The notes beneath the pieces are model-generated. The model did no database searches, was not told the origin of the DNA, and saw nothing but the letters and a program-made list of their open reading frames with translations. Shown here in pieces: positions 2,607-64,000 of a stretch of DNA of 64,000 bases. The DNA is from Anastrepha obliqua. Taxonomy: Eukaryota > Arthropoda > Insecta > Diptera > Tephritidae. The DNA is taken from contig NC_072893.1 in assembly GCF_027943255.1 (NCBI RefSeq), forward strand, positions 21,164,001 through 21,228,000, written 5' to 3'. The position numbers and the translations under genes are program-made. Position 1 is the stretch's first letter; the number at the start of each line of letters is the position of its first letter.

Positions 2607-3317
2607 TGATTGTTTAGTTACATAATTACAAAAGAAATCGCTGAACCAAACTTGCTTGGCACCTGTTGAGTTGAGTCTCCATATATTCTGGTATCATTGA
2701 ATTAGAATTTTTGACTCAAGTTTTCGCTAAGACGACAATAATTGCTTAATAAACTTTTTTAACAAATTAATAACTTTTAAGCAATAAAGAAATGATAAAT
2801 TGATGCTCACTCGAAATACTCTTTTTTTTCAAATATTTCTACCATTAAATTCAAGTCACATTCAAGAAGGTAGAGAAGTAGAGAAGGATTAAGATAGAGA
2901 AGATCCAGTAACGAATACTTGCCCGAACCACTATTAATTCGTACTTCTACGATTTATTCTCAAAACAAATCCCGTTACAAAATTGTAAACCAATTTTTTC
3001 AAAATTTTATTACAGCAAAGTGCAAGTTTCAAGTTACTACAAAATACCATTGATTTTTTGTCGCTAAGGTTTCACGGCGTTTCTTCATTCAAAGTAAATG
3101 ATGGGTTTTTTTGAAATGAAAAAAAAAAACGCCTAGCTCCGTCAGCAAAAAACAAAAAAAAAAAAAGAGGTTGTCTGTAAAGTCGGTTTGCTGACGATAG
3201 TTTAACGTGATAACGTCATAAGAAAATACTGATTGAATGGTTGCATTTTTCAAAAGAAAATTTTAATTTTATTTGTTTGATAGATATTTTGTATGGATAT
3301 AGAGAATGAGTTAACAT
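2607..3317. other. AT-rich spacer, no gene seen
   Basis: No credible coding frame. AT-rich with A/T runs. The stretch at 3172-3226 contains AACGTGATAACGTCATAAG, which recurs in inverted, slightly diverged form near 5998-6020. These could be the ends of a degenerate repeat, but I cannot define its boundaries. Confidence 0.5.
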
Positions 3318-3856
3318 TAACATAACATAATATAACATAACATAACACAACACAACACAACACAACACAACACAACACAACACAACACAACACAACACAA
3401 CACAACACAACACAACACAACACAACACAACACAACACAACACAACACAACACAACACAACACAACACAACACAACACAACACAACACAACACAACACAA
3501 CACAACACAACACAACACAACACAACACAACACAACACAACACAACACAACACAACACAACACAACACAACACAACACAACACAACACAACACAACACAA
3601 CACAACACAACACAACACAACACAACACAACACAACACAACACAACACAACACAACACAACACAACACAACACAACACAACACAACACAACACAACACAA
3701 CACAACACAACACAACACAACACAACACAACACAACACAACACAACACAACACAACACAACACAACACAACACAACATAACATAACACAACACAACACAA
3801 CACAACACAACATAACATAACATAACATAACATAACATAACATAACATATCATAAA
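3318..3856. repeat. AACAC pentanucleotide satellite tract
   Basis: About 540 bp of near-perfect 5-bp repeat (AACAC, read AACAT in the flanks). The core from about 3345 to 3775 is almost pure AACAC. AACAT variants concentrate at both edges, as expected if homogenisation is strongest in the middle. The long Leu-Cys-Val frames on the complementary strand come from the repeat and are not genes. Confidence 0.97.
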
Positions 3857-4598
3857 GCATTCACCAACAGCTTCCATTTGATACCCATATTGTACATACA
3901 CATCCGAAGGTTACCCGGGTCCACGTTTTGACCTATATCTCGAGACCCTATCTACCAATAGGTATCCAAACTATACGGAAACCATCTTCAATACCTCCTT
4001 AACAATGTGTGTAAGTTTGGTTTAATTCGGTGCAAAGACACGGCGGGTCCACGTTTTGGCATATATTTCCAGACCCTAGTCATCAATAGGTATGAAAATT
4101 ACCCCGTATTAAAGCACTTATCAACAGCTTTCATTTGATACCCATATTGTACATACACAACCAAAGGTTACCCGGGTCCACGTTTTGACCTATATCTCGA
4201 GACCCCAGTCACGGAGCGGCATGGAAAATACTCTGTACTAAAGCATTCCCCAACAGCTTCAATTTGATATCCATATTGTACAAACACATTCTAGGGTCCA
4301 CGTTTTGGTCTCTATCTCGAGACCCTAGTCATGGAGCGGCATGAAAAATACTCTGGACTAAAGCATTCACTAACAGCTTCCATTTGATACCCATATTGTA
4401 CATACACATCCGAAGGTTACCCGGGTCCACGTTTTGACCTATATCTCGAGCCCTATTTCCAAAATAAAATATAATCCATGTTACTCGTGGATGATGTAGC
4501 TTTCGAATGGTGAAAGAATTTTTAAAATCGGGCCAGTAGTTTTTGAGCCTATTCATTACAAACAAACAAAGTTTTCCTCTTTATAATATTAGTATAGA
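3857..4598 (-). mobile_element. non-autonomous Helitron-like element with internal subrepeats
   Basis: On the minus strand it starts with TCTATACTAATATTATAAAG at 4598, a Helitron-type 5' TC terminus, and shares this start with 21921. It contains several copies of a roughly 120-130 bp unit holding CATTTGATACCCATATTGTA and CGGGTCCACGTTTTGACC (near 3875, 4130, 4265 and 4380). The same units recur in inverse orientation at 22240-22700. No coding capacity. The 3' end abuts the pentanucleotide tract and is not recognisable. Confidence 0.65.
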
Positions 4599-11897: not shown

Positions 11898-12938
11898 TTA
11901 AAGTTGAACCTTTGACATTGGTAAACCCCTTGCGCCTAAACCGGTAACTTTGTAAGTGCTGCCAGCCTGTGCGGGTAGGTCAGGCGAAGCCGATGTGGTC
12001 ACATACAAAATATCGAGATTGGGACCACCCCAGGCGGCTGAAGTGATTTGTTTGGTGGGGAACTTGATTTCCAGAAGAACTATGCCGGTGCTGCAGATAC
12101 AAAAATTTAAATAATAACTTCTCCTTTCATTACATTTGAATAAGCTTGCCTTGGGTTGACCTTGTAAATGGCATGTCCATTGTTTATGGCAACATAGAGA
12201 TTTCCTTTGCTGTCTATGGTTAAACCGTCGGGCCACAGATTGTCCTGCGGGTTTGAGTTACACAAATTTAATACAACTTTTGGGTTACCTACAAATACAG
12301 AAATTAATGCAACCAGATAACTAAGTCTCATTCACACATCAATCTTTCTTACTTGGTACACCGGCATCAAAGTCATAATCGTACTCTTTCACGTTACAGT
12401 CGGACGTGTCAATGTAGTACATTTTCTTCGTCTGCTCGTTCCAAGCCAAGCCATTGGAAATGCCCACATCCGTCTTCACCACCGTTACTTTGCCACCCTT
12501 TTCATATTTGTACAATGCGCTCGAACGATCATTAAGCACATCGCCCTCATAACGCATAGTGCCGGCAAAGAGGCGACCGCGTGGATCGGCTTTGCCATCG
12601 TTAAAGCGATAAACAACATATTTTTCACCGGGTAGCACTGAAAAGAGTACGCGATCTACTTTGCTTGTCTCGGAAACACCATCCCATGAAACAACTATTA
12701 CACTGCGTCCGGATCCAACGACAAACTTGCCACTCTGACCCTCAATGGGCACGATGAAGGAGGCTAGAGCTATACCCTTGATTTTGCTATGGTACACCTT
12801 GTTCTGCTGGTAGTCATAGCGTAATATTTTGCCAGCATCAATATCGACATAGTAGAGACTCTGCGTCTCGATATCCCAGTGAGGACCTTCACCGAGGTGG
12901 GCGTAAGAGTTTGGTAATGGCTCGATTTTGTACAAGAT
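11898..12938 (-). CDS. regucalcin: regucalcin (SMP-30) copy A, open but without ATG
   Basis: Calcium-binding six-bladed propeller of the SMP-30/gluconolactonase family. Exons on the minus strand: 12938-12353, 12288-12150 and 12090-11898, 918 nt with stop, no internal stop. Metal-site motifs are kept: LGEGPHWD, RFNDGKADP, GISNGLAW and WPDGLTID. Intron 1 is GT-AG; intron 2 starts GCAAGC (GC-AG). About 31 of roughly 195 exon-2 residues differ from copy B by eye. The codon aligned with B's start is ATC, directly after the acceptor, and no other early ATG exists. Module A also lacks the distal exon seen in B and C. Either it is dying, or translation starts in the upstream signal-peptide exon (15541-15621), which joins in phase 0. 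Confidence 0.85.
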
Positions 12939-15486: not shown

Positions 15487-15621
15487 TTATTCCCCAAACA
15501 CAACTAAATAGTTTCCTCTTAATTCCCGCAGCTTATTTACCGTTGCTTCCTCGTCAATTTCCACCCCATTGGCGCTTGAGCACAAAATAAGTGAAATTAT
15601 TATTAAACTTAACAGATCCAT
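15487..15621 (-). CDS. 44-codon signal-peptide ORF, copy A
   Basis: An intact minus-strand ORF of 44 residues. Residues 1-19 (MDLLSLIIISLILCSSANG) look like a classical signal peptide with cleavage after Gly19. The remaining 25 residues are acidic, then KLRELRG, ending YLVVFGE, with no Cys. TATAAAG lies at 15752-15758 and an initiator-like TTCAGTAG at 15724. The TAA stop is part of an AATAAA. Codon 27 (ACG) is followed by GTAAAT, a plausible splice donor at 15540. Splicing from there to 12938 would fuse 27 residues in frame to regucalcin A. So it is either a free secreted peptide or the first coding exon of a secreted regucalcin. I recognise no family. Confidence 0.6.
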   Translation of the reverse strand: MDLLSLIIISLILCSSANGVEIDEEATVNKLRELRGNYLVVFGE

Positions 15622-15758: not shown

Positions 15759-15867
15759 AGTTTACATTTTAAGTTACTGCCGATCACCGAAGTCAGAGAC
15801 CCTACAAAACTAAATCAAAAGGCGCAAACAAAGAGTTGAATGAGTAAAAAGTGATTAGTTATTTTAA

Positions 15868-18364
15868 CCCTTAACTGGTATCGTGGGGGACGCGCAGACC
15901 CCACGCGTTTTATTTTTTTGAATTTCTTAAAAACTACGCATAGTACGCGACTGCCGTTTTGAGTAATCTCATTACGTCGCGACACGCGGCGGGTGTCGGA
16001 CGTTCGGCGCTGAAGCTTTTACCAGAGCGGAGCTACGTACGTTGCGGGGGCCGTGCGGACCCCACTATACCAGTTGCGTAAGTTTTTAGTAAATATTTTA
16101 TTTAACTTATTTGTTTGTTTTACAGTTATTTTGCTAAGATGGCCAGACCTTTGAGTAATAGGACTATAGAAGAAATACTGAACGAGGATTCTGACTCCGA
16201 ATCAGTACTCGGTGGCCATCTAGAAGAACATATCAGTGACAATGATGGAATTAGCGATTGTGAGAAGCCGCCAACACAAGACTCAGATAGCAGTGAGGAT
16301 CTGGGTCCAGAAATTGAAGCATGTTCTTCGAAGAGTGAAGATGAACCTGTTGCAGGACCGAGTCAGAGCAGTTACTATGGAAAAAATAAATACAAATGGT
16401 CTAAAAATCCACCAGCAGCTTCTCGAACTCGTCAACATAACATCGTTAGACAAAGGCCTGGATTGATTGGTCCAGCAGCGTCAAAAAATGAGATGACTAC
16501 CAAAGAACCATTTGAACTACTTATAGATGGTAATATTATACAAATTATAACTAACCATACAAACGAAAAGATTACAGAGAGTTCAGAAAAATATTCCACA
16601 GTGGCGTTTTGGACAAATCATGTTTCTGAAACGGAGATGAAAGCTTTTATAGGTCTTATGCTACTGGCCGGAGTATTCAAATCTGGACATGAAGATGTAG
16701 AATCTTTGTGGGCCACAGACGGAACTGGTCGCGAAATTTTTAGAACAACCATGGCATTGAAAAGATTTTTGTTCATTTTGGCAAATCTACGGTTTGATGA
16801 TATTGCATCAAGGTAGGAACGAAAGACTGTAAATCGGGCGGCATTGATTTCTGAAGTGTTTGACAGATTTATAGAAAATTGTCAGAAAAATTACAGTTGT
16901 TCGGAATATATAACCATTGACGAAATGTTATGTCCATTTCGAGGCCGATGTTTGTTCCGGGCTTACATGAAATCAAAGCCAGCTAAATATGGCATCAAAA
17001 TATTATGCCTATGTGATGCTAAGACTCACTATTTATATAATGCTTTCATATATACTGGGAAACAGCATGATCGTACCAGGTGTCAACAATCCATACTAAC
17101 ACAATCCGTACTACAGTTAGCTACTCCAATTTTTGGATCAAACAGAAATATAACAGCAGATAATTGGTTTTCTTCAGTGGAGCTGGTAGATACATTGCTG
17201 GAAAAGAATTTGACTTATGTTGGGACATTGAGAAAAAATAAACGTGAAATCCCCTCCCAATTTCAACCAAATAAACAACGTCAACCTGGAACAACTATCT
17301 TTGGATTTACGGCGAGCAAAACACTTCTCAGCTTCTTTTGTACCGAAAAAGAATCAGAGTGTAATAATGATTTCTTCAATGCACCACAACCAAACTGTCA
17401 ATGAAAGATCTGGGAAACCTGAAATAATAGAGTTTTACAATTCCACAAAAGGTGGAGTTGATGCTTTAGACCAAAAGTGCGCTAATTACTCTGTAGCTCG
17501 CAGAACACGACGTTGGCCAAGTGTAGTGTTTGCTGGAATACTAAATATTGCTTGTGCGAACGGCTGTGTGTTATGGAAAAGTTCAAATACTGAAAAAAAA
17601 AAAAATGAAAAGGAAGAACTACATAAAATCAGCTGGGATGGAATTAATAAAAGAACATGTCATAAATCGGAAAGCTGAGTATTCAATGTACCCACGAGAA
17701 CTGCGAGAAAAGATTGATCGTTTAGTAGCATCTTATAATATAACTGCAACATCTGTGACTAATTCCACGCCTGAAGTTGCCACCTCGAGCCGAAATGATC
17801 TAAAAAGAGGGCGCTTTTACTTATGTGATAGAAAAAAAGACGGGAAATTTGTTACAAAATGCAATAATTGCAAGCATTTCATTTGCAAATTGCACAGTAG
17901 CACAAAAGTACTGTGTGATAGTTGTCAAGACTGAAATTAGTCCACTTATAATGTTCCTAAACACTTCGGTTTATAATTTTGTGTTGATTTTTTTCTAATA
18001 CGTTGAAATACTTATGTTTTAGTTTATTTTTTCAAAGTTGATTTTATAAGAAATAAGAAAACATACATATGTTAGCTAAAGACTTTCGAAATAATAGTTT
18101 TTTTTTTTATTTTTATAGTGGTAAGAAAAAAATACCAAAAAATTGTCCAAATTTTGTGATCCCTTGTAGTAAATAAGTTAAAAGAAGTATGGTATATGAA
18201 TAAAAACTTATTAATTTCATAAAACAAGCTTGTTATTTGTCCTATCAAAATAATTCTTGAAAAAAATTGTAGATATTTGTATCCTAGAATCTAATTTTAA
18301 TAGGGGGCCGCGCGGCCCCCACGATACTAGTTTCGTTAGTCAAATTTACGATACCAGTTAAGGG
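15868..18364 (+). mobile_element. piggyBac-like DNA transposon, family 2
   Basis: TTAA flanks both ends (15864-15867 and 18365-18368). The terminal inverted repeats are CCCTTAACTGGTATCGT, identical over 17 bp, and a GTGGGGG/CCCCCAC motif is repeated subterminally. Length is 2,497 bp. The empty site is visible in module B near 34434, where the flanking bases are continuous, so the insertion is specific to module A. Confidence 0.95.
16139..17934 (+). pseudogene. piggyBac transposase, nonsense and frameshift mutations
   Basis: The start ATG at 16139 follows a TTGTTTTACAG acceptor-like site. The acidic N-terminus (SDSESVLGG, SDSSEDLGPE) leads into the DDE_Tnp_1_7 domain: ITIDEMLCPFRG (first Asp), ITADNWFSS (second Asp) and STKGGVDALDQKC (third Asp). 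The Cys-rich C-terminus has CNNCKHFICKLH and CDSC. Damage: an in-frame TAG at 16814-16816, a frame change near 17325, and another at the A-run near 17590. All catalytic Asp codons remain, so decay looks fairly recent. Confidence 0.92.
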
Positions 18365-18405
18365 TTAATGTTTTTGCACGACCTGTTGCCTGGTTTGAAA
18401 GCAAA

Positions 18406-30535: not shown

Positions 30536-31577
30536 TTAAAGTGTAACCTTGGCCATTGGCAGACCCTTCGCGCCTAAGCCAGTAATCTTGTAAGTGGTGC
30601 CAGCCGGTGCAGGTTGGTCGAATTTAGCCGATGTCGTCACATACAAAATATCGAGATTGGGACCACCCCAGGCGGCTGAAGTGATTTGCTTGGTGGGGAA
30701 CTTGATTTCCAGAAGAACTTTGCCGGTGCTGCAAAAAGAAAAATTTAAATAATAACTTCTCCACCCTTTACATTTGCTTCAACTTGCCTTGGGTTGATCT
30801 TGTAAATGGTGTGCCCGTTGAATGTGCACACATAGAGATTTCCATCGCTGTCAATGGTCAAGCCATCGGGCAGCAAGTTGTCCTTCGGGTTCGATTTACG
30901 CAAATTGAAAACAACTTTTGGGTTACCTACAAATACAGAAATAAATGCAATTTTCATTTACTGCTTTTCGCACTACTTCAGTCCTTCTTACTTGGTACAC
31001 CGGCATCAAAGTCGTAATCGTACTCCTTCACCTCGTAGTCGGCCGTGTCAATATAGTACATTTTCTTCGTCTGCTCGTTCCAAGCTAAGCCATTGGAAAT
31101 GCCCACATCCGTCTTCACCACCGATACTTTGCCACCCTTTTCATATTTGTACAATTCACCGAAACGCTCCTTGAACTCATCGCCCACATAAATCATAGTG
31201 CCGGCAAAGAGGCGGCCACGTGGATCGGCTTTGCCATCGTTGAAGCGGTTCCTAACATATTTGTCACCGGGTTGCACTGAAAAGAGTACGCGATCTACTT
31301 TGCTTGTCTCGGAAACGCCGTCCCATGAGACAACTACCACACTGCGTCCGGCACCGACAACAAACTTGTCACTCTGACCCGCGATGGGCACGATGAAACC
31401 GGCTAGATCTATACCCTCGACTTTGCTGCCGTACACTTTGTTCTCCTGGTAGTCGTAGCGCAATATTTTACCAGCTTCGATATCGACGTAGTAGAGACTC
31501 TGCGACTCGACGTCCCAGTGAGGACCTTCACCGAGGTGGGCATAGGAGTTGGGCAATGGCTCGATTTTGAACGACAT
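30536..31577 (-). CDS. regucalcin: regucalcin (SMP-30) copy B, intact
   Basis: Predicted cytosolic Ca2+-binding SMP-30/gluconolactonase-like six-bladed propeller of 305 residues. Exons on the minus strand: 31577-30992, 30926-30788 and 30728-30536. The start ATG directly follows a strong acceptor (CTTTTCTTCACCCAG). The metal-ligand motifs are GEGPHWD (Glu17), FNDGKADP, GISNGLAW and LPDGLTID. Intron 1 is GT-AG; intron 2 is GC-AG (AG|GCAAGT), which is required to keep frame into TGKVLLEIKF. All three reading frames are open and the length is normal for the family. It is the only copy with an ATG, a distal 5' exon (35200-35272) and the signal-peptide ORF. It probably has two promoters. Confidence 0.95.
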
Positions 31578-34045
31578 CTGGGTGAAGAAAAGTGAAGAAA
31601 AGTAAATGAGGATTAGAGGCTATGTGATTTGAAGCTAAATGAATTCGTAGGATGGGGGTGGTATCCAAGCCCAATCTACTTGAATTTATTGTGCATATTT
31701 CAAACATTTTGGGTTATGCCTTTATAAAATAAATCTGATGAGGTGATTGTCTTGTATTTTTCCATTAAAGCAAAAAAATATTTCAGTGTTATTGTCTCAC
31801 AGCTGCAATGTAATAAATATTTCGCAAGGTTTACAACAAATTGACGAGGGTTATCAGCCTTTTAACCTTTTCAAGCAGCTGGCTTAAGTACAATAAAATA
31901 TTTACAGAATCAAAATCAGATACTTTTTTTGTTTTTTTTTTCGAAGGAAAACGTTTAAGTTGTGTTTACAATTAATTACAGGCAATCAAAGCGATCAAAT
32001 GTGTGACCATATAAATGAAAGTGGGACCATCGAAATGAAATAGTAAATGACAAAAATATTTCTTCTACTTAATAACAACTACGCTTCAGCGACCTTTGGA
32101 AAACCTCGTAGTGCATTTCCGACATGGCGCGACTTCTGCCACCAAATTACCTACTAAAAGGTTTGTCAGTCAGAATTGGGTGAAAGATGAGATCAAAAGG
32201 GCACCTAACACGATTTTCAAAGCATTTGAACGCATTTGATGATCGATGCATTCTCTGAAAAATTTGATTTTTCTTCTACGTTCGGCGAAACCCTAAATCG
32301 GAACTAAAAAAAATACGGAAACATGGCGGCGATAGAGTGAAGGCCGGTATGGAAAATTCGGAATATTCAAAAAGAATTTGTTTTGCAGTGTTGGGAAACT
32401 GGGTATACTCGAACAATTCTGATTGAGTTAAGAGCAGAAGTACATTCCTGTATCATATGGAACTGGGCTAAGTGAGTGCTCCGACAGTCGGTTCTTTATT
32501 TACTATATATTCGGCCAAGGACTGTCATTCCAGCAGCACTCCCTGTACATGTATGGGAGTGCAACAACAACAACAGCGCTACTGGAGGAATGACGGAAGA
32601 TTCCACATGCCATTTCTTGAAAGTTTGTCGGTTTAATGGCCAGCAGACTACCCGCTTTTGTTAATATAAAAACTCATCACATCAAACTATCCACAAATTT
32701 GTGCAACTTTTAACCCAGAGCTGTGTATCAAAAAAGTTCTGTTATTAACTTTTCAGTATTTTTAGTTGTCACGTTGTTAGTCAAGAATATTGGAACATAA
32801 ATCGACTCTTCTGGCTAAAATAATCACAGTGAGTCTCACTGGAAATCGCACAGCTGTTTTGTTGGCACTATTTTGAAAGTTTGCATTTATTTCTTGTTAA
32901 TTCGCCATAAAAATATAGTCTAAAATACGCTAAAAAATTTTAAAATTAAAGCTCCAAACTCTTTAACTAAACTCACAAAAATCGAAAAAAAAAATTCATA
33001 AAAATTTAAAATATTTCAGATATGTTCTTAAGTTTGCCTAGAATTTTCCGGGTCATGAAATTTTTGGTTTATTTAATTTTTGTATTACATAATCGAGTGG
33101 AAGTTTGAAGTAACTACAATCACCTATTTGGAGGTTATGAGTTTTTTACAGATCTTTTTTACTATAGAACGAATTCTCGTAATTTACATTTCTATGAAAA
33201 ATTCACAAGGCATAATTTTTAAATTGTAAGCACTGGCCACTTATAACTTGCCCCATACTAACGGAACTTCGTGTGATTGCAATTATTGAAATCTTTTCGC
33301 TTCATTGTAAATTGTTCAAAAGAAATATTATTTGTTAGGTTATGTATTATGTTTTTATAATTCTGAAAATTCCAATTAAAATTTTTTAAACTTTTTCGAT
33401 TTTAGTAAATTTTTTTTAACATTTTTTTATTAATTTGTTTATTAAAATTTTCTAAGCAATTTATAGTGCCCTTTTTTTTAGTTCTAATAATATTTTTTTT
33501 AAATAAGCATAAAAGTAAAAATAAAGAAACAAATATTCTAAAAAACATATGTGGATGTGCGTTTTTCCGTGAAACTCACTGTATATTTTACCACAAGCGG
33601 ACAATCGCATTATTTAATTGTTGTGATTTTATTTGTAAATTATTATGATTTAACCCTAAAACAGGTACTGTATCAAGTAAGTCGCGAGTCACTGTGTGTG
33701 CGTGTGTTCAAAATTGTTTTCTAACAGTTGGAAAATAGAAATTTTTAATGTATGAATATAATATTTAAAAACATTAGTTATTGAAAAACCATGAATTTTT
33801 TATAGGCTTTTTCTGAATTTTGTAAGGAATGTCAGCACTTTAAACTACAGTGGCACTAAATTTATGCCCACCTGTACCTTTTCATAATATAAAAGAATTT
33901 GCCTTGAAAACTTCATGCCCAGTTGGGCTCTTTGTGCCTCAGAAAATACAATTTGCACAATAAAAAACGCATTTCAAAGTATGACAAAATCTAATCATAA
34001 AAAAATCACTTAGTTCCGTTTCACAACCTTATGAATATTTATGGT
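31578..34045 (-). other. 5' intron of regucalcin B
   Basis: No other coding gene seen. The part about 32005-33795 is shared with module C but absent from A. It contains the short repeat at 32470-32580. The rest is AT-rich and collinear with A and C. Confidence 0.6.
32470..32580 (-). repeat. short interspersed repeat ending in GTT run
   Basis: Minus strand: TGTTGTTGTTGTTG, then CTCCCATACATGTACAGGGAG (a small hairpin), TGCTGGAATGACAGTCCTTG and CCGACTGTCGGAGC. It is absent from the corresponding place in module C (55808), so it inserted into B. Related sequence occurs at 49360-49480. Confidence 0.6.
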
Positions 34046-34180
34046 TTATTCCCCAAACACCACTAAATAGTTTCCTTTTATTTCCCGCAGCTTATTTACC
34101 GTTGCTTCCTCTTCAATTTCCGCCTCATTAGCGTTTGAGCACAAAATAAGTGAAATTATTATTAAACTTAACAGATCCAT
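34046..34180 (-). CDS. 44-codon signal-peptide ORF, copy B
   Basis: Intact, the same length as copy A and collinear with it, on the regucalcin strand inside its 5' intron. The signal sequence is MDLLSLIIISLILCSNANE; the mature part starts acidic (AEIEEEATV) and ends NYLVVFGE. Compared with A there are six amino-acid changes and two silent ones, with no indels, so purifying selection is not shown. The donor-like ACG|GTAAAT after codon 27 (intron from 34099) joins regucalcin exon 2 at 31577 in phase 0. The two readings are a free secreted peptide, or an alternative first exon for a secreted regucalcin. TATAAAG lies at 34316-34322. Confidence 0.62.
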   Translation of the reverse strand: MDLLSLIIISLILCSNANEAEIEEEATVNKLREIKGNYLVVFGE

Positions 34181-34282
34181 TGCTTTAATTTATTAGAAAA
34201 AATGTATTCAGGCACTAAATTCCGCCTTCGCGAAAAATAAACCGAATGAGGTACAACACAGCGCGGCGTTACAAGACACTAC

Positions 34283-34322
34283 TGAAGCCTTGAATGTGAC
34301 TGCACTGCAGTGGCGCTTTATA
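34283..34322 (-). promoter_or_regulatory. TATA box and initiator for signal-peptide ORF B
   Basis: Minus strand: TATAAAG at 34322-34316 and TTCAGT with the A at 34283, 39 nt apart. A 5-bp duplication (CTGCACTGCAG against CTGCAG in A) lengthened the spacing from 34 in A and C. Confidence 0.5.
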
Positions 34323-34433
34323 AGTTTACATTTTAAGTTATTGCCGATCACCGAAGTCAGCTGGCCGCAGAGACAAAACTAAATCGAAAGGTGCAAACAA
34401 AGAGTTGAATGAGTAAAAAGTTATTTGTTATTT

Positions 34434-35195
34434 TAGTGTTTTTGTGCGACCTGTTGGCTGGTTTGAGAGCAACATCGGATTGAACGAGAGTTTATGCATA
34501 CATACATACATACATACGGATATGAAGCACTGTCTGTTGCTGCAGTGACCTCCACCTGGATCTGACCAACTTAAATATGATCTTCCCACTATGCACGATT
34601 AATTAATAAACTAACCAAAACTAGTTACACGAACTCTAAAGTTCTGTAGTGGTTGCAAATTATCACTTTTTATCTGTGATACCGCCTTGTAAAAGTAATC
34701 AATAGAAAGTATTGCGCGTAGAGGAGGCACATCTAGTGCCATCCTTTTTCAAATACAAACTAAGCGGCGAGCATTTTGAGTGCAAGAGAGGAATTTTCAA
34801 ATTGCATTCACTTTTGAGGGCATTAATTCTCAAAATGCTAATTGCAATGCATTTCAAATGACAATAAATACAAATCGATTACACAAACAATTCTCTGCTG
34901 AGTAACTCTTAAACTTTGCGTACACTCATAAACGGCATCGGTATTATATGAAGTTTATGTGAATATGAATTTGTGGAGTTGAGAGAGCTTTAGACACCTC
35001 ACGCACTTAAGCTTGGATAAATTATTTTTCATCCAACGCATTTTAATGCAAATGGAAATCAGTTAATAAACTAACAATAAGAAATAGTTTCCTATTCTCA
35101 TTCAATGCCAGTTATTTCACTTAAATTCTTGTTAATCGTTCAAAACACAAATCACTTTGCACCAAAAAAACTTCTAACTTTTGAAGTTCGTATTC
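34434..35195. other. 5' intron of regucalcin B, distal part
   Basis: Collinear in reverse with about 51425-52360 of module C. The piggyBac-free target site matching module A lies at its start (near 34434). Microsatellite CATA at 34497-34516. No coding frame. Confidence 0.55.
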
Positions 35196-35199
35196 GTAC

Positions 35200-35272
35200 C
35201 TTTGCACTTATTTAGTACTTTTTGAGGATCACGAAATGATTAAACAACAGAAGACGCACTGAAAAGCAAACT
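35200..35272 (-). other. predicted non-coding first exon of regucalcin B
   Basis: Runs from the initiator A (35272) to AAGTGCAAAG|GTACGA, a splice donor at 35199. It holds no ATG, so the start codon is the exon-2 ATG. The exon, donor and promoter are conserved in module C in the same position and orientation. The link to regucalcin is inferred: same strand, donor here, acceptor at 31578 with no intervening same-phase start. Confidence 0.55.
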
Positions 35273-35304
35273 GAATAGCAATGGGCTGAAGAGATCTTTT
35301 TATA
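35272..35304 (-). promoter_or_regulatory. distal core promoter of regucalcin B (TATA + Inr)
   Basis: TATAAAAAG at 35304-35296 and TATTCAGTTTGC with the +1 A at 35272. The 32-nt spacing is canonical for insect TATA/initiator promoters, and the Inr fits TCAGTT. The arrangement is conserved in C (51316-51348). Confidence 0.65.
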
Positions 35305-44510: not shown

Positions 44511-44789
44511 TTTTTTTGAAAAATAACAAAATGGCGGACTTTTGAAAAAAAAGGTATGTTTTTCGGGTGGAAATCAGACTGTAGATTTCTCACTGTAGCA
44601 CCTTCCAGAAAGCCTACAGAATAATAATCAGTGTAACTTTTTCGTTTCAGATGTCCTGAAGAGCCAAGATCCTGTCGACAAGCCATCTATCTTTTTTTTG
44701 AGACGCTTACTTTGGTGCCACACTACTACAAAAACATACGTAAAAAAAACGTTTTTGTATACTATTTGATGTCAATAATAACATACATA

Positions 44790-46065
44790 GGACTATGAAT
44801 AAGTTCGTGCGGTTTTTTTTCGAAATTTGAAACTTTATTGACGTAAAATGGTTACAAATTTAATATTCAAAGTATTGTCCATCGCTTACTACTACTTTTT
44901 CCCATCTTTCTGGCAATTCACGGATTCCCTTTGTGAAAAATTCGGTCGGTTTTGCCGCAATCCACGAATCGATCCATTTTTTGACTTCATCGTAATTACG
45001 GAAGTGCTGGTCAGCCAGGCCATGTTGCATCGATCGGAAGAGATAGTAATCGGATGGCGCAAGGTCTGGACTATACGGCGGGTGGGGTAGGACATCCCAT
45101 TTGAGCGTTTCTAAGTATGTTTTGACCACTTGTGCAACATGTGGCCGAGCATTGTCATGTTGCAAAATAACTTTGTCGTGTCTATCGGCGTATTGCGGCC
45201 GTTTTTCTCGCAGTGCTCGGCTCAAACGCATCAATTGTCGTCGGTAGACATCCCCCGTAATCGTTTCATTCGGTTTCAGTAGCTCATAATACACAACACC
45301 CAGCTGGTCCCACCAGATACACAGCATAACCTTCAGGCCATGAATATTCTGCGCCGACGTCGATGTTGAAGCATAGCCAGGGTATCCATACGTTGCCCGA
45401 CGTTTTGGATTGTCGTAATGGACCCACTTTTCATCGCCAGTCACAATTCGATGCAAAAAACCCTTTCTTTTGTGCCGTTGAAGCAGTTGTTCGCATGCCA
45501 TAAAACGGCGTTCAACGTCTCTTGGCTTCAATTCATACGGCACCCAATGGCCTACCTTTCGGATCATTCCCATGGCTTTTAAACGTTTGGAAATGGTTGA
45601 TTGATCAACTCCCAAAGTTTTTGCAACCTCTTCTTGCGTTTGAGCCGGATCTTGATCGAGCAATTCCTCCAATTCGGTATCCATGAACTTTGGCGGCGCA
45701 CCCTCGCGTTCTTCGTCTTCCAAGCCAAAATCACCACTTTTAAAGCGTGCAAACCACTTCTGGCACGTTCGCTCAGCTAGAGCATGCTCACCATAAACTT
45801 CCACCAAGATACGATGACTTTCGGCTGCTTTTTTCTTCATATTAAAATAATGAAGAAGAATTCCCCGCAAAAACACATTATTTGGCACGAAATTCGACAT
45901 TTTCAAGTGTGGTAAAAATATTGTTGTTTACGCTTCAAATAAAAAACTTATACTGACGTTTGTGCCTTACGACAGTAGCTCTCCAATGAATGTTTGGAAA
46001 TGTGGATCGATGGAATAATAATCAAGTTACGCCATCTGTTGTAAAACCGCACGAACTTATTAAAT
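44790..46065 (-). mobile_element. mariner element, complete, apparently intact
   Basis: The terminal inverted repeats share AATAAGTTCGTGCGG (left near 44796, right near 46046). A TA precedes the left end at 44788-44789. The right boundary is uncertain by a few bases because the outermost bases differ. It encloses one uninterrupted transposase ORF. The second copy at 63055 starts with the same GGACTATGAATAAG, supporting the left end. Confidence 0.88.
44860..45906 (-). CDS. mariner transposase, 348 aa, intact
   Basis: DD34D transposase for cut-and-paste transposition at TA sites. N-terminal helix-turn-helix: RGILLHYFNMKKKAAESHRI, ERTCQKWFARFKSGDFGLED. Second helix-turn-helix: TLGVDQSTISKRLKAMG. 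The linker motif WVPYEL is present. Catalytic residues: IVTGDEKWVHYDN (first Asp), ILQHDNARPH (second) and YSPDLAPSDYYLF (third, 34 residues after the second). The full length matches the usual 345-350 residues and there is no stop or frameshift, so it may be active. The other copy at 63.1 kb differs by one residue (His for Tyr in YPGYAST). Confidence 0.96.
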   Translation of the reverse strand: MKMSNFVPNNVFLRGILLHYFNMKKKAAESHRILVEVYGEHALAERTCQKWFARFKSGDFGLEDEEREGAPPKFMDTELEELLDQDPAQTQEEVAKTLGVDQSTISKRLKAMGMIRKVGHWVPYELKPRDVERRFMACEQLLQRHKRKGFLHRIVTGDEKWVHYDNPKRRATYGYPGYASTSTSAQNIHGLKVMLCIWWDQLGVVYYELLKPNETITGDVYRRQLMRLSRALREKRPQYADRHDKVILQHDNARPHVAQVVKTYLETLKWDVLPHPPYSPDLAPSDYYLFRSMQHGLADQHFRNYDEVKKWIDSWIAAKPTEFFTKGIRELPERWEKVVVSDGQYFEY

Positions 46066-51120: not shown

Positions 51121-51315
51121 GTAAACAATTTCCTAAAATAAACAACGATGTTAGTCTGCAAATAGAACGAAATTAAGAGTAAGGGATTCATTGTAAATAG
51201 ACCAGAGCTAATTAATAGAATTCTTAAATTCCGAATATTCGCCGATCATCTAATAAAAGAAGTGCCGAGTGGGCTGAGTGTAGCGCACAGAAGAATATTT
51301 TGAAGGGAATTTCCC

Positions 51316-51348
51316 TATAAAAAGATCTCTTCAGCCCATTCCTGTTCA
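51316..51348 (+). promoter_or_regulatory. distal core promoter of regucalcin C (TATA + Inr)
   Basis: TATAAAAAG at 51316-51324 and CTGTTCAGTTTGC with the +1 A at 51348, 32 nt apart as in B. Confidence 0.6.
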
Positions 51349-51421
51349 GTTTGCTTTTCAGCGCCTCTTCTGTTGTTTAATCATTTTTGTGACCCTCAAA
51401 AAGTACTAAATAAGTGCAAAG
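51348..51421 (+). other. predicted non-coding first exon of regucalcin C
   Basis: From the initiator A to AAGTGCAAAG|GTACGA, with the donor at 51422. No ATG. Collinear with 35200-35272. The downstream gene is broken, so its transcript would probably be non-coding. Confidence 0.45.
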
Positions 51422-52467
51422 GTACGAATACGAACTTCAAAATTTAGAAGTTTCTTTGGTGCAAAGTGTTTTGTGTTTTGAACGATTAACAAGAATTTAA
51501 GTGAAATAACTGGCATTGAACGAGAATAGGAAACTATTTCTTGTTGTTTGTTTATTGACTGATTTCCATTTCCATTAAAAAGCGTTGGATGAAAAATACT
51601 TTATCCAAGCTTCAGTGCGTCAGGTGTCTAAAGCTCTCTCAACTCCACAAATTCATATTCACATAAACTTCATATAATACCGATGCCGTTTATGGGCGTA
51701 CTCAGGCAAAGTTTAAGAGTTACTCAGCAGAGAACTGTTTGAATAATCGATTTGTATTTTTTGTCATTTGAAAGGCATTGCAATTAGCATTTTGAGAATT
51801 AATGCCCTCACAAGTGAACGCAATTTGTAAATTCCTCCGTTGCACTCAAAATGTTCGCCGCTTAGTTGCGGAAGCTTCTCTGTAGTAGCGCAGAACTTCA
51901 TTTTCAAGGGATGGCACTAGATGTGCCTCCTCTACGCGCAATTCTTTCAATTGATTATCATTACAAGACGATTTTAAGATACAAAGTGATAATTTGCAGC
52001 CACTACAGAACTTTAGAGCTCGTGTAGCTAGTCAGGTTTTGGACAGTTTATTAATTAATCGTGCATAGAGGGAAGATAATATGTAAGTTGGTGAGGGTCA
52101 GGCGGAAGTCACTGCAGCGACAGAAAATCTGAGCGCATTTTGACAATTTTTTTAATGGAGGATAATTAAATGAATTAAAATTTTGAAAGCGGCCTTTTAT
52201 TCAAGATGCCCTAAACTGTATAGTTTTTTATATGTAGTTTTTTCTTTCTCAATGTACTAGCAGGGCTTCATATCCGTATGTATGTATGAATAAGCACTCG
52301 CTCAATCCGATGTTGCTCTCAGACCAGCCAACAGGTCGCACAAAAACACTAAAATAACAAATAACTTTTTACTCATTCAACTCTTTGTTTGCACCTTTCG
52401 ATTTAGTTTTGTGGTGTCTCTGCGGCCAGCTGATTTCGGTGATTGGCAATAACTTAAAATACAAACT
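51422..52467 (+). other. 5' intron of regucalcin C, distal part
   Basis: No coding gene. Collinear in reverse with 34434-35199. Confidence 0.5.
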
Positions 52468-52605: not shown

Positions 52606-52740
52606 ATGAATCTGTTAAGTTTAATAATAATTTCACTAATTTTGTGCTCAAGCGCCAATGATGCGGAAATTGACGAGTAAGCAACGGTAAATAAGCTGCG
52701 GGAAATAAAAGGAAACTATTTAGTTGTGTTTGAAGAATAA
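52606..52740 (+). pseudogene. signal-peptide ORF, copy C, nonsense mutation
   Basis: Collinear with copies A and B over all 45 codons. The ATG is kept (MNLLSLIIISLILCSSAND), but codon 25, GAA in A and B, is TAA at 52678-52680. The stop lies before the donor-like site after codon 27 (52687), so it disables both the free peptide and any in-frame fusion to regucalcin. The later codons, including the old TAA at 52738-52740, are still recognisable. Confidence 0.8.
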
Positions 52741-56161: not shown

Positions 56162-57211
56162 ATGTCGTTCAAAATCGAGCCATTGCCTAACTCTTACGCC
56201 CGGTGAAGGTTCTCACTGGGACGTCGAGAGGCAGAATGTCTACTACGTCGATATTTGAAGCTGGCAAAATATTGCGCTATGACTACCAGGAGAACAAAGT
56301 GTACGGCAGCAAAGTCGAGGGTATAGATCTAGCCGGTTTCATCGTCCCCGTCGCGGGTCAGAGTGACAAGTTTGTCGTCGGTGCCGGACGCAGTGTGGTA
56401 GTTGTCTCATCGGACGGCGTTTCCGAGACAAGCAAAGTAGATCGCGTACTCTTTTCAGTGCAACCCGGTGACAAATATGTTAGGAACCGCTTCAACGATG
56501 GCAAAGCCGATCCTCGAGGTCGCCTCTTTGCCGGCACCATGATTTATGTGGGCGATGAGTTCAAGGAGCGTTTCGGTGAATTGTACAAATATGAAAAGGG
56601 TGGCAAAGTATCGGTGGTGAAGACGGATGTGGGCATTTCCAATGGCTTGGCTTGGAACGAGCAGACGAAGAAAATGTACTACATTGACACGGCCGACTAC
56701 GAGGTGAAGGAGTACGATTATGACTTTGATGCCGGTGTACCAAGTAAGAGAGGCTGATGCAGTGCGAAAAGCAGTAAATGAAATTTACTTATCTGGTTGT
56801 GTTTATTTCTGTATTTGTAGGTAACCCAAAAGTTGTTTTCAATTTGCGTAAATCGAACCCGAAGGACAACCTGTTACCCGATGGATTAACCATTGACAGC
56901 GATGGAAATCTCTATGTGTGCACATTCAACGGACACACCATTTACAAGATCAACCCAAGGCAAGTATAAGCAAATGTAATGAAAGGAGAAGTTATTATTT
57001 AAATTTTTCTTTCTGCAGCACCGGCATAGTTCTTCTGGAAATTAAGTTCCCCACCAAGCAAATCACTTCAGCCGCCTGGGGTGGTCCCAATCTCGATATT
57101 TTGTATGTGACGACATCGGCTAAATTCGACCAACCTGCACCGGCTGGCACCACTTACAAGATTACTGGCTTAGGCGCGAAGAGTTTGCCAATGGCCAAGG
57201 TTACACTTTAA
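56162..57211 (+). pseudogene. regucalcin: regucalcin copy C, frameshifted
   Basis: The exons 56162-56743, 56821-56959 and 57019-57211 match copy B. After codon 13 a 5-bp deletion (GCCCACCTCGG to GCCCGG) shifts the frame to an immediate TGA, and a 1-bp insertion follows near 56256. Exon-2 length is 582 instead of 586, exactly -5+1. The Glu17 metal ligand lies in the damaged part. From AGKILRYDYQ on the frame is open and differs from B in about two of 160 exon-2 residues, one of them Trp to Ser in VVSWDGVSE. Introns are intact, including the GC-AG second intron. The young age of the breaks is inferred from this high similarity. Confidence 0.92.
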
Positions 57212-62789: not shown

Positions 62790-63054
62790 CGAGTTTTTTC
62801 GGCTTGATGTTGTCAAAAATAATTTAAAAAAATATTCAACCGAATAGTCTGAAATTTCAATATGTGGTTCACAGCATCAATGGCTGTCGTCGCCCGTATT
62901 AGAATCATATTATTATTTCAATTATTTCGTATTTTTCTGATTGAAAAACTGAAAAAAAAACCTTTTAGAGTGTCAAATTCAAAACCAAGCCATTTTGTCG
63001 ATTTCTTTTTTAATCAAGTACGGGGCATGGCTACAGTCATACTGATTAATAATA
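62790..63054 (+). repeat. partial copy of element X interior
   Basis: Shares TCAATATGTGGTTCACAGCA-type sequence and ATTATTTCAATTATTTCGTA with 29340-29500 and 58870-58990. Neither terminal repeat is present. It ends at the mariner insertion (ACTGATTAATAA). Confidence 0.6.
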
Positions 63055-64000
63055 GGACTATGAATAAGTTCGTGCGGTTTTTTTCGAAATTTGAAACTTT
63101 ATTGACGTAAAATGGTTACAAATTTAATATTCAAAGTATTGTCCATCGCTTACTACTACTTTTTCCCATCTTTCTGGCAATTCACGGATTCCCTTTGTGA
63201 AAAATTCGGTCGGTTTTGCCGCAATCCACGAATCGATCCATTTTTTGACTTCATCGTAATTACGGAAGTGCTGGTCAGCCAGGCCATGTTGCATCGATCG
63301 GAAGAGATAGTAATCGGATGGCGCAAGGTCTGGACTATACGGCGGGTGGGGTAGGACATCCCATTTGAGCGTTTCTAAGTATGTTTTGACCACTTGTGCA
63401 ACATGTGGCCGAGCATTGTCATGTTGCAAAATAACTTTGTCGTGTCTATCGGCGTATTGCGGCCGTTTTTCTCGCAGTGCTCGGCTCAAACGCATCAATT
63501 GTCGTCGGTAGACATCCCCCGTAATCGTTTCATTCGGTTTCAGTAGCTCATAATACACAACACCCAGCTGGTCCCACCAGATACACAGCATAACCTTCAG
63601 GCCATGAATATTCTGCGCCGACGTCGATGTTGAAGCATGGCCAGGGTATCCATACGTTGCCCGACGTTTTGGATTGTCGTAATGGACCCACTTTTCATCG
63701 CCAGTCACAATTCGATGCAAAAAACCCTTTCTTTTGTGCCGTTGAAGCAGTTGTTCGCATGCCATAAAACGGCGTTCAACGTCTCTTGGCTTCAATTCAT
63801 ACGGCACCCAATGGCCTACCTTTCGGATCATTCCCATGGCTTTTAAACGTTTGGAAATGGTTGATTGATCAACTCCCAAAGTTTTTGCAACCTCTTCTTG
63901 CGTTTGAGCCGGATCTTGATCGAGCAATTCCTCCAATTCGGTATCCATGAACTTTGGCGGCGCACCCTCGCGTTCTTCGTCTTCCAAGCCAAAATCACCA
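63055..64000 (-). mobile_element. mariner element, second copy, runs off the window
   Basis: Same family and orientation as 44790-46065. The left end GGACTATGAATAAG and the following sequence match almost base for base to the window edge. I see one T-run length difference and one A/G change. It inserted in the element X interior, whose uninterrupted form is visible at about 29495. Confidence 0.93.
63124..64000 (-). CDS. mariner transposase, partial (window edge)
   Basis: C-terminal 290 or so residues of the DD34D transposase. Open throughout, with catalytic VTGDEKWVHYDN, LQHDNARPH and SPDLAPSDYYLF. Identical by eye to the protein at 44860-45906 except His for Tyr in YPGxAST. The N-terminus lies beyond the window. 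Confidence 0.94.
   Translation of the reverse strand, partial: GDFGLEDEEREGAPPKFMDTELEELLDQDPAQTQEEVAKTLGVDQSTISKRLKAMGMIRKVGHWVPYELKPRDVERRFMACEQLLQRHKRKGFLHRIVTGDEKWVHYDNPKRRATYGYPGHASTSTSAQNIHGLKVMLCIWWDQLGVVYYELLKPNETITGDVYRRQLMRLSRALREKRPQYADRHDKVILQHDNARPHVAQVVKTYLETLKWDVLPHPPYSPDLAPSDYYLFRSMQHGLADQHFRNYDEVKKWIDSWIAAKPTEFFTKGIRELPERWEKVVVSDGQYFEY

What the first reader, a model, noticed from the sequence alone, without database searches (positions are those of the whole stretch)
30536..35304. Regucalcin with a nested signal-peptide exon: possible switch between cytosolic and secreted forms
Seen: in module B a TATA/Inr promoter and a non-coding exon lie 3.7 kb upstream of the regucalcin ATG. 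Inside the intron, on the same strand, lies a second TATA promoter with a 44-codon ORF beginning with a signal peptide. A donor-like ACG|GTAAAT after codon 27 joins the regucalcin start exon in phase 0. Known: regucalcin is generally described as a cytosolic/nuclear SMP-30 protein. Inference: alternative promoters could give a cytosolic and a secreted regucalcin. The alternative is an independent secreted micropeptide gene nested in the intron.
Basis: partly seen in the sequence, partly recalled or inferred. Interest (0 to 1): 0.9.

Follow-up and report, generated by a model that had tools for sequence, protein, structure and literature searches.

The report
Fly regucalcin with optional secretion exon
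A fruit-fly gene for the normally intracellular protein regucalcin has a second starting exon that adds a secretion signal, and neighbouring copies of the gene look specialised for the secreted or the intracellular form, a split that seems to recur in other flies.

Summary
In copy B the 27-codon signal-peptide exon (34180-34100) joins the regucalcin start exon (31577) in phase 0. The joined 332-aa protein is identical over its whole length to NCBI "regucalcin-like isoform X1 [Anastrepha obliqua]".

The gene lies in a five-copy cluster that separates the two modes. B and D carry both first exons. A has the signal exon, no cytosolic exon and no Met before core residue 128. E has the cytosolic exon and ATG, but no signal exon. 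C is broken. A, B, D and E cores are open and conserved (dN/dS 0.06-0.33).

Of 120 listed relatives, 29 have a hydrophobic N-terminal extension; seven of these end in an N-glycosylation sequon exactly at the junction. Met-less copies seem to have arisen separately in Anastrepha and Bactrocera (p-AU 0.0012).

Best reading: alternative promoters give cytosolic and secreted regucalcin. The free-micropeptide rival found no support. No RNA or isoform-level protein data could be examined, so secretion is inferred. The isoform is in RefSeq; my searches showed no paper that discusses it, though I opened few of those listed.

The parts
35200..35304 (-). Copy B cytosolic promoter (TATA 35304, TCAGT 35274) and non-coding first exon ending at 35200, donor GT at 35199
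   Evidence: TATAAAAAG and donor GGTACGAATAC identical in copies B, C, D, E; no match at copy A
34285..34322 (-). Copy B inner promoter: TATAAAG 34322 and TCAGTAGTG 34285
   Evidence: both words kept in 4 of 4 signal cassettes (B has 5 more bases between them than A, C and D)
34100..34180 (-). Copy B signal-peptide exon, 27 codons, MDLLSLIIISLILCSNANEAEIEEEAT, donor at 34099
   Evidence: identical to residues 1-27 of NCBI isoforms X1 and X3
34049..34099 (-). Codons 28-44 of the 44-codon ORF; intron in the fused transcript, coding only if the intron is retained
   Evidence: no homologue of the 44-aa peptide
30992..31577 (-). Copy B regucalcin exon 2; ATG directly after the acceptor
30788..30926 (-). 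Copy B regucalcin exon 3, followed by a GC-AG intron
30538..30728 (-). Copy B regucalcin last exon and stop
15541..15621 (-). Copy A signal-peptide exon, MDLLSLIIISLILCSSANGVEIDEEAT, open, same donor
11901..12938 (-). Copy A regucalcin core (exons 12938-12353, 12288-12150, 12090-11901, with introns); begins ATC TTG, first Met at core residue 128
51291..51431 (+). Copy C cytosolic promoter and first-exon region (92% to B)
52606..52686 (+). Copy C signal-peptide exon, stop at codon 25
56162..57208 (+). Copy C regucalcin core, frame broken near its start: pseudogene

Best explanation
Copy B is a dual-destination regucalcin gene. A distal promoter (TATA 35304) makes an mRNA whose non-coding exon splices to 31577, where translation starts at the ATG next to the acceptor and gives the ordinary 305-codon cytosolic protein. 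An inner promoter (TATA 34322) makes an mRNA whose first exon carries its own ATG and a 27-codon signal peptide. It splices in phase 0 to the same acceptor, and the product enters the ER and is secreted, with the former start Met now internal. Duplication has since separated the two modes: A is a secreted-only copy, E a cytosolic-only copy, B and D remain dual, C is dead. Shown here: exon anatomy, identity of the fusion to a RefSeq isoform, copy architecture, core conservation, hydrophobic extensions on relatives. Inferred: promoter use, signal cleavage, secretion, any functional difference.
For: Identity over 332 of 332 residues with NCBI regucalcin-like isoform X1 of A. obliqua. Musca X1 and X2 share an identical 306-aa core. 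29 of 120 listed relatives start with Met and have a 16-53 residue extension with a hydrophobic stretch; 23 of these 29 also pass the stricter rule, which 15 of 409 window ORFs pass (A and B among the 15). In 7 of the 29 (the 4 Bactrocera, Musca, Glossina, Lucilia) the last three residues before the junction are N-x-S/T, a signal used in the ER (the last point is general knowledge). Copy A's core has no early Met yet is conserved (dN/dS 0.28-0.33 against B, D, E); three Bactrocera proteins also lack an early Met. In the 5 copies the cytosolic exon and the core ATG go together (present in B, C, D, E; both absent in A), while the signal exon is present in A, B, C, D and absent from E. AF2 model of the fused form: mean pLDDT 93.4; block means for residues 1-30 are 63, 49 and 58, with a helix at 3-14, so the extension is not part of the confident fold.
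Against: No transcript, CAGE or isoform-level proteomic data were available; RefSeq models may rest partly on prediction. My signal-peptide test is a simple rule, not a trained predictor; 6 of the 29 extensions fail the stricter form (P0014, P0015, P0023, P0064, P0089, P0110), and the Anastrepha n-region (MD) has no positive side chain. The signal exon between A and B shows 5 changes in 81 nt, 4 of them non-synonymous (ratio 1.09): too few to show coding constraint. Copies A-D are similar well past the donor, so similarity of the exon is not evidence by itself. A search with the signal end of a Bactrocera protein found only four Bactrocera proteins and A. obliqua X3, so homology of the extensions between fly families is not shown by sequence. 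8 of 37 Met-starting extensions are not hydrophobic. Neither Anastrepha nor Drosophila has the junction sequon. Copy A's second core codon is TTG, a possible near-cognate start.
Confidence: 0.8

Rival explanations
1. The 44-codon ORF is an independent secreted micropeptide gene nested in the intron and ends at its own stop.
For: The ORF stays open through codon 44 with the stop at the same place in A, B and D.
Against: No protein of similar length shares three words with it, whereas its first 27 codons are found fused to regucalcin in RefSeq. Similar signal ends are fused to regucalcin in Bactrocera.
Confidence: 0.04
2. The hydrophobic extension takes the protein to the ER lumen, a membrane (uncleaved anchor) or another organelle rather than outside the cell.
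For: Short Drosophila extensions run straight into MSYK with few residues for a cleavage region. No trained predictor was run.
Against: No KDEL-like end in the A, B, D and E cores. Longer extensions in Bactrocera and the three calyptrates end in a sequon at the core border, as a mature luminal N-terminus would; this fits the ER lumen too.
Confidence: 0.12
3. The signal form of copy B is a rare or accidental transcript without a role; only the cytosolic form matters there.
For: Signal exon A-B ratio near 1; likeness of the cassettes does not stop at the exon.
Against: Hydrophobic extensions recur on regucalcins from Drosophila to sandflies. Met-less copies are kept in two tephritid genera.
Confidence: 0.09

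Closest known systems
Regucalcin / SMP-30 (Pfam PF08450; Drosophila regucalcin CG1803 and smp-30/Dca)
   Same: Full SGL domain (216 bits against cut-off 26.3); sequence relatives of known structure are the firefly luciferin-regenerating enzyme 5d9b and human regucalcin 3g4e (species names recalled).
   Different: Here a second first exon adds a signal peptide.
RefSeq N-terminally extended regucalcin isoforms of Anastrepha, Bactrocera, Musca and Drosophila
   Same: The same kind of extended isoform; A. obliqua X1 is identical to the window's fusion.
   Different: They are database models. In 8 searches I saw no paper on the extension, but I opened passages of only 6 of the papers listed there.
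Genes with alternative first exons that change protein destination (methionine sulfoxide reductase, PMC1431549, seen in the listing with title and start of abstract; gelsolin and IL-1 receptor antagonist, recalled)
   Same: Two first exons, one core, two compartments.
   Different: Here duplication has also separated the two modes into secreted-only and cytosolic-only copies within one cluster (inferred from exon content).

Membership tests
Regucalcin / SMP-30 (SGL) | SGL domain above the curated cut-off | tested here: met
   P0001 216.2 bits, P0002 200.9 bits, cut-off 26.3
Regucalcin / SMP-30 (SGL) | Metal-site residues Glu, Asn, Asn, Asp (identity of the residues recalled) kept in copies B and A | tested here: met
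   E of GEGP, N of FNDGK, N of ISNGL and D of PDG in copy A align with 3g4e; same residues in B and A
Regucalcin / SMP-30 (SGL) | Lactonase activity and Ca2+ binding | not testable with these tools
   needs purified protein
Alternative-first-exon dual-destination gene | Two first exons that can join one acceptor in a usable frame | tested here: met
   sequence; fused form identical to RefSeq X1
Alternative-first-exon dual-destination gene | One form carries a cleavable signal peptide | tested here: inconclusive
   passes a hydropathy and -3/-1 rule; no trained predictor, no N-terminal sequencing
Alternative-first-exon dual-destination gene | Both transcripts are made, from separate start sites | not testable with these tools
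   no RNA or CAGE data here; TATA and TCAGT elements seen at both
Alternative-first-exon dual-destination gene | Protein found in two compartments | not testable with these tools
   no isoform-level proteomics; PMC3986406 lists Drosophila regucalcin in a table on apocrine secretion, annotated cytoplasmic (passage)
Independent secreted micropeptide | Relatives as a free short protein | tested here: not met
   no candidate

The most novel reading that the evidence does not exclude
The cluster behaves as one compound gene. The signal cassette is a movable unit, copied into or homogenised in copy A after A's core had diverged, and one signal exon (B) can splice onto the core of a different paralogue 21 kb downstream. 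The annotated A. obliqua isoform X3 carries B's 27 residues, not A's own, on A's core. Secreted regucalcin would then be produced from exchangeable cores behind one promoter.
Probability: 0.3. Interest if true: 0.75.

Novelty: new member of a known kind. Interest (0 to 1): 0.57.

Why it matters
Regucalcin is generally treated as an intracellular calcium and lactone protein, and regucalcin and smp-30 have been studied in Drosophila cold response (PMC3184994, abstract start and passages). If flies also secrete it from a dedicated exon, studies that knock down or measure the whole gene have mixed two products, and regucalcin in saliva or haemolymph need not mean leakage. The cluster gives a natural series (dual, secreted-only, cytosolic-only, dead) in which the partition of a dual-destination gene after duplication could be tested directly.

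Tried and rejected
Free micropeptide: searched with E up to 10, no candidate. Nucleotide constraint as the cause of the A-B likeness of the signal cassette: disfavoured, because B-D differ there (29 of 475) about as much as at core third positions (13 of 305, Fisher p 0.33), while A-B differ by 26 of 481 against 65 of 305 (p 3e-11); later transfer or gene conversion fits better. One origin of the Met-less copies: rejected by the AU test for Anastrepha A plus three Bactrocera copies (p 0.0012) and with a partial Rhagoletis protein added (p 0.0038). I named these groups by the trait but after seeing the tree, and gene conversion within a genus could imitate the result. Loss of A's cytosolic exon through the piggyBac-like insertion alone: not sufficient, since beyond the insertion about 40 bp of B-like sequence remain (B 34472-34433 to A 18404-18365). 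A calcium-affinity argument for an extracellular role: dropped; the one paper looked at gives Kd 0.29 uM for human and 7.89 uM for mouse SMP30 (PMC6586323, passages), which does not favour it. A genome-wide count of regucalcin cores could not be obtained (server busy, 9 tries); five copies is the count in 184 kb.
Full report
What is there. On the minus strand, copy B has a distal TATA (35304) and TCAGT (35274), a non-coding exon ending at 35200, an inner TATA (34322) and TCAGTAGTG (34285), an ATG at 34180 opening 44 codons, a donor after codon 27 (34099) and a shared acceptor before 31577. Joining 34180-34100 to 31577-30992, 30926-30788 and 30728-30538 gives a 332-aa open frame.

Identity. NCBI's regucalcin-like isoform X1 of Anastrepha obliqua is identical over all 332 residues (P0001). 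The contig that holds it and the contig that holds the window have the same length, 134,537,425, so the window is very probably A. obliqua (inference). The isoform is therefore already in a public database. Eight paper searches that bear on it showed no paper discussing it. This is limited: I saw listings, and opened passages of six papers only (PMC3184994, PMC10558556, PMC3986406, PMC12218971, PMC10961823, PMC6073878). Of the 18 papers that hold regucalcin, signal peptide and Drosophila, I opened four; insect-saliva papers among the rest were not opened.

The cluster. In 184 kb around the window there are five regucalcin cores (window coordinates, those above 64000 lie outside the window). 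A: 12938-11901 minus, signal exon at 15621, no cytosolic exon, starts ATC TTG with first Met at residue 128. B: dual. C: 56162-57208 plus, both exons, stop at signal codon 25 and a broken core frame. E: 69666-70704 plus, cytosolic promoter and exon region 69120-69260, ATG, intron of 415 bp, no signal cassette. D: 87154-88204 plus, cytosolic region 81866-82006, signal exon with ATG at 83141 (its last codon is ATG, not ACG), ATG in the core, thus dual. The signal-exon DNA matched nowhere else in the 836-Mb assembly at the sensitivity (4 matches, all here). The A, B, D and E cores each have 305 open codons. dN/dS is 0.12 (B-D), 0.06 (B-E), 0.10 (D-E) and 0.28-0.33 for A against the others. With Ceratitis, Bactrocera and Eurosta as outgroups, of 52 A-B differences in 303 residues 33 are derived in A, 13 in B and 6 unclear. 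A is thus conserved but faster. A conserved core with no early Met needs an upstream coding exon, or a near-cognate start such as the TTG at codon 2; in A the candidate exon is the signal exon. This argument does not depend on RNA data.

Breadth. Of the 120 relatives listed (of 784 matches), 39 have 14-99 residues before the core, 37 of them start with Met, and 29 of these contain a 10-residue stretch of mean hydropathy 2.0 or more. Under the stricter rule, 23 of the 29 pass and 6 fail. The 29 come from Anastrepha, Bactrocera, Musca, Glossina, Lucilia, Drosophila, hoverflies, Eurosta, sandflies, a biting midge, a gall midge and unnamed contigs. Against the reading, 8 Met-starting extensions are not hydrophobic, five of them from Drosophila. 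In 13 of 29 the core's first residue is Met, in 4 the extension ends in Met, in 2 its last-but-one residue is Met, and in 10 there is no Met in its last six residues or at the first core position (from the rows). In 7 of 29 (4 Bactrocera, Musca, Glossina, Lucilia) the last three residues of the extension are N-x-S/T. By eye the alignment also shows a shared stretch before that sequon, like VSMEV in Bactrocera dorsalis and Lucilia, ISMAV in Glossina and VSLEV in Musca. Neither Anastrepha nor Drosophila has the sequon. A search with residues 1-60 of P0007 found only four Bactrocera proteins and A. obliqua X3 (5 of 9 candidates), so common descent of the extensions between families is not shown by sequence; it rests on position, phase and these short likenesses. 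Musca X1 and X2 have identical cores. P0050 (B. latifrons) has an aberrant C-terminal end in the alignment.

Repeated partition. On a tree of 17 cores without their first two residues, Anastrepha A groups with Anastrepha B (94/91, just short of the strongest class) and the Met-less Bactrocera copies with B. dorsalis X1 (96/98); a tree of 35 cores agrees (95/92 and 96/95). Forcing the Met-less copies of the two genera together is rejected (p-AU 0.0012; with a partial Rhagoletis protein 0.0038). So the loss of the cytosolic start probably happened at least twice, unless gene conversion within genera has erased an older pairing.

The cassette in A is younger than its core. Over the signal cassette A and B differ at 26 of 481 sites, but at 65 of 305 third positions in the core (p 3e-11). 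B and D differ at 29 of 475 and 13 of 305 (p 0.33). The cassette was therefore probably transferred to A, or homogenised with a B-like copy, after the cores separated. Homology of A to B ends near B 34472, beside a short TATG repeat; a piggyBac-like element lies between. Whether the upstream exon was lost or never copied is open.

Cross-paralogue isoform. NCBI's A. obliqua isoform X3 (P0002) has A's core but B's 27 signal residues, which differ from A's own. Either a transcript from B's inner promoter skips B's core and splices 21 kb on, or the model is an alignment artefact; the two signal exons share their last 12 nt. I could not decide.

Fold. An AF2 model of the fused form has mean pLDDT 93.4; the first three blocks of ten residues average 63, 49 and 58, with a helix at 3-14, and the later blocks 92-99. 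The extension thus lies outside the confident fold. The four residues recalled as the metal site align with human regucalcin.

Verdict. The step from exon to secretion is inferred. The added value is the copy series and the signs of its recurrence in other flies.

Noticed in passing
15860-18368: piggyBac-like element: similar ends near both borders with TTAA, transposase-like frame interrupted between 16106 and 17934. It lies just upstream of copy A's signal cassette (type recognised by eye).
   Followed up: partly
44787-45736 and 63052-64000: Two stretches 99.8% identical, the first overlapping a 355-codon stop-to-stop frame that looks like a mariner-type transposase (type recognised by eye); possibly recently active.
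   Followed up: no
30787 and 12149: The second intron of the regucalcin core starts with GC instead of GT (GCAAG) in copies A and B; the same CCCAAG|GCAAG site was found in D and E when their frames were built.
   Followed up: partly
3216-3910: Long array of a 5-base repeat open in several frames on both strands, so its ORFs are meaningless.
   Followed up: no
P0048, P0060, P0066, P0072: Some Drosophila regucalcin or smp-30 proteins have 20-54 residue extensions that are not hydrophobic; by eye P0072 resembles a mitochondrial leader. A further destination may exist.
   Followed up: no
P0092, P0093, P0108 and P0070, P0075: Hoverflies and Eurosta have regucalcins with a hydrophobic extension and no Met at the core start, suggesting secreted-only copies in other lineages.
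   Followed up: partly
P0006 (A. ludens): Extended protein of 275 aa with a disturbed stretch about 30 residues into the core; its signal end begins MNLL as in copy C. It may come from a damaged relative of copy C.
   Followed up: no
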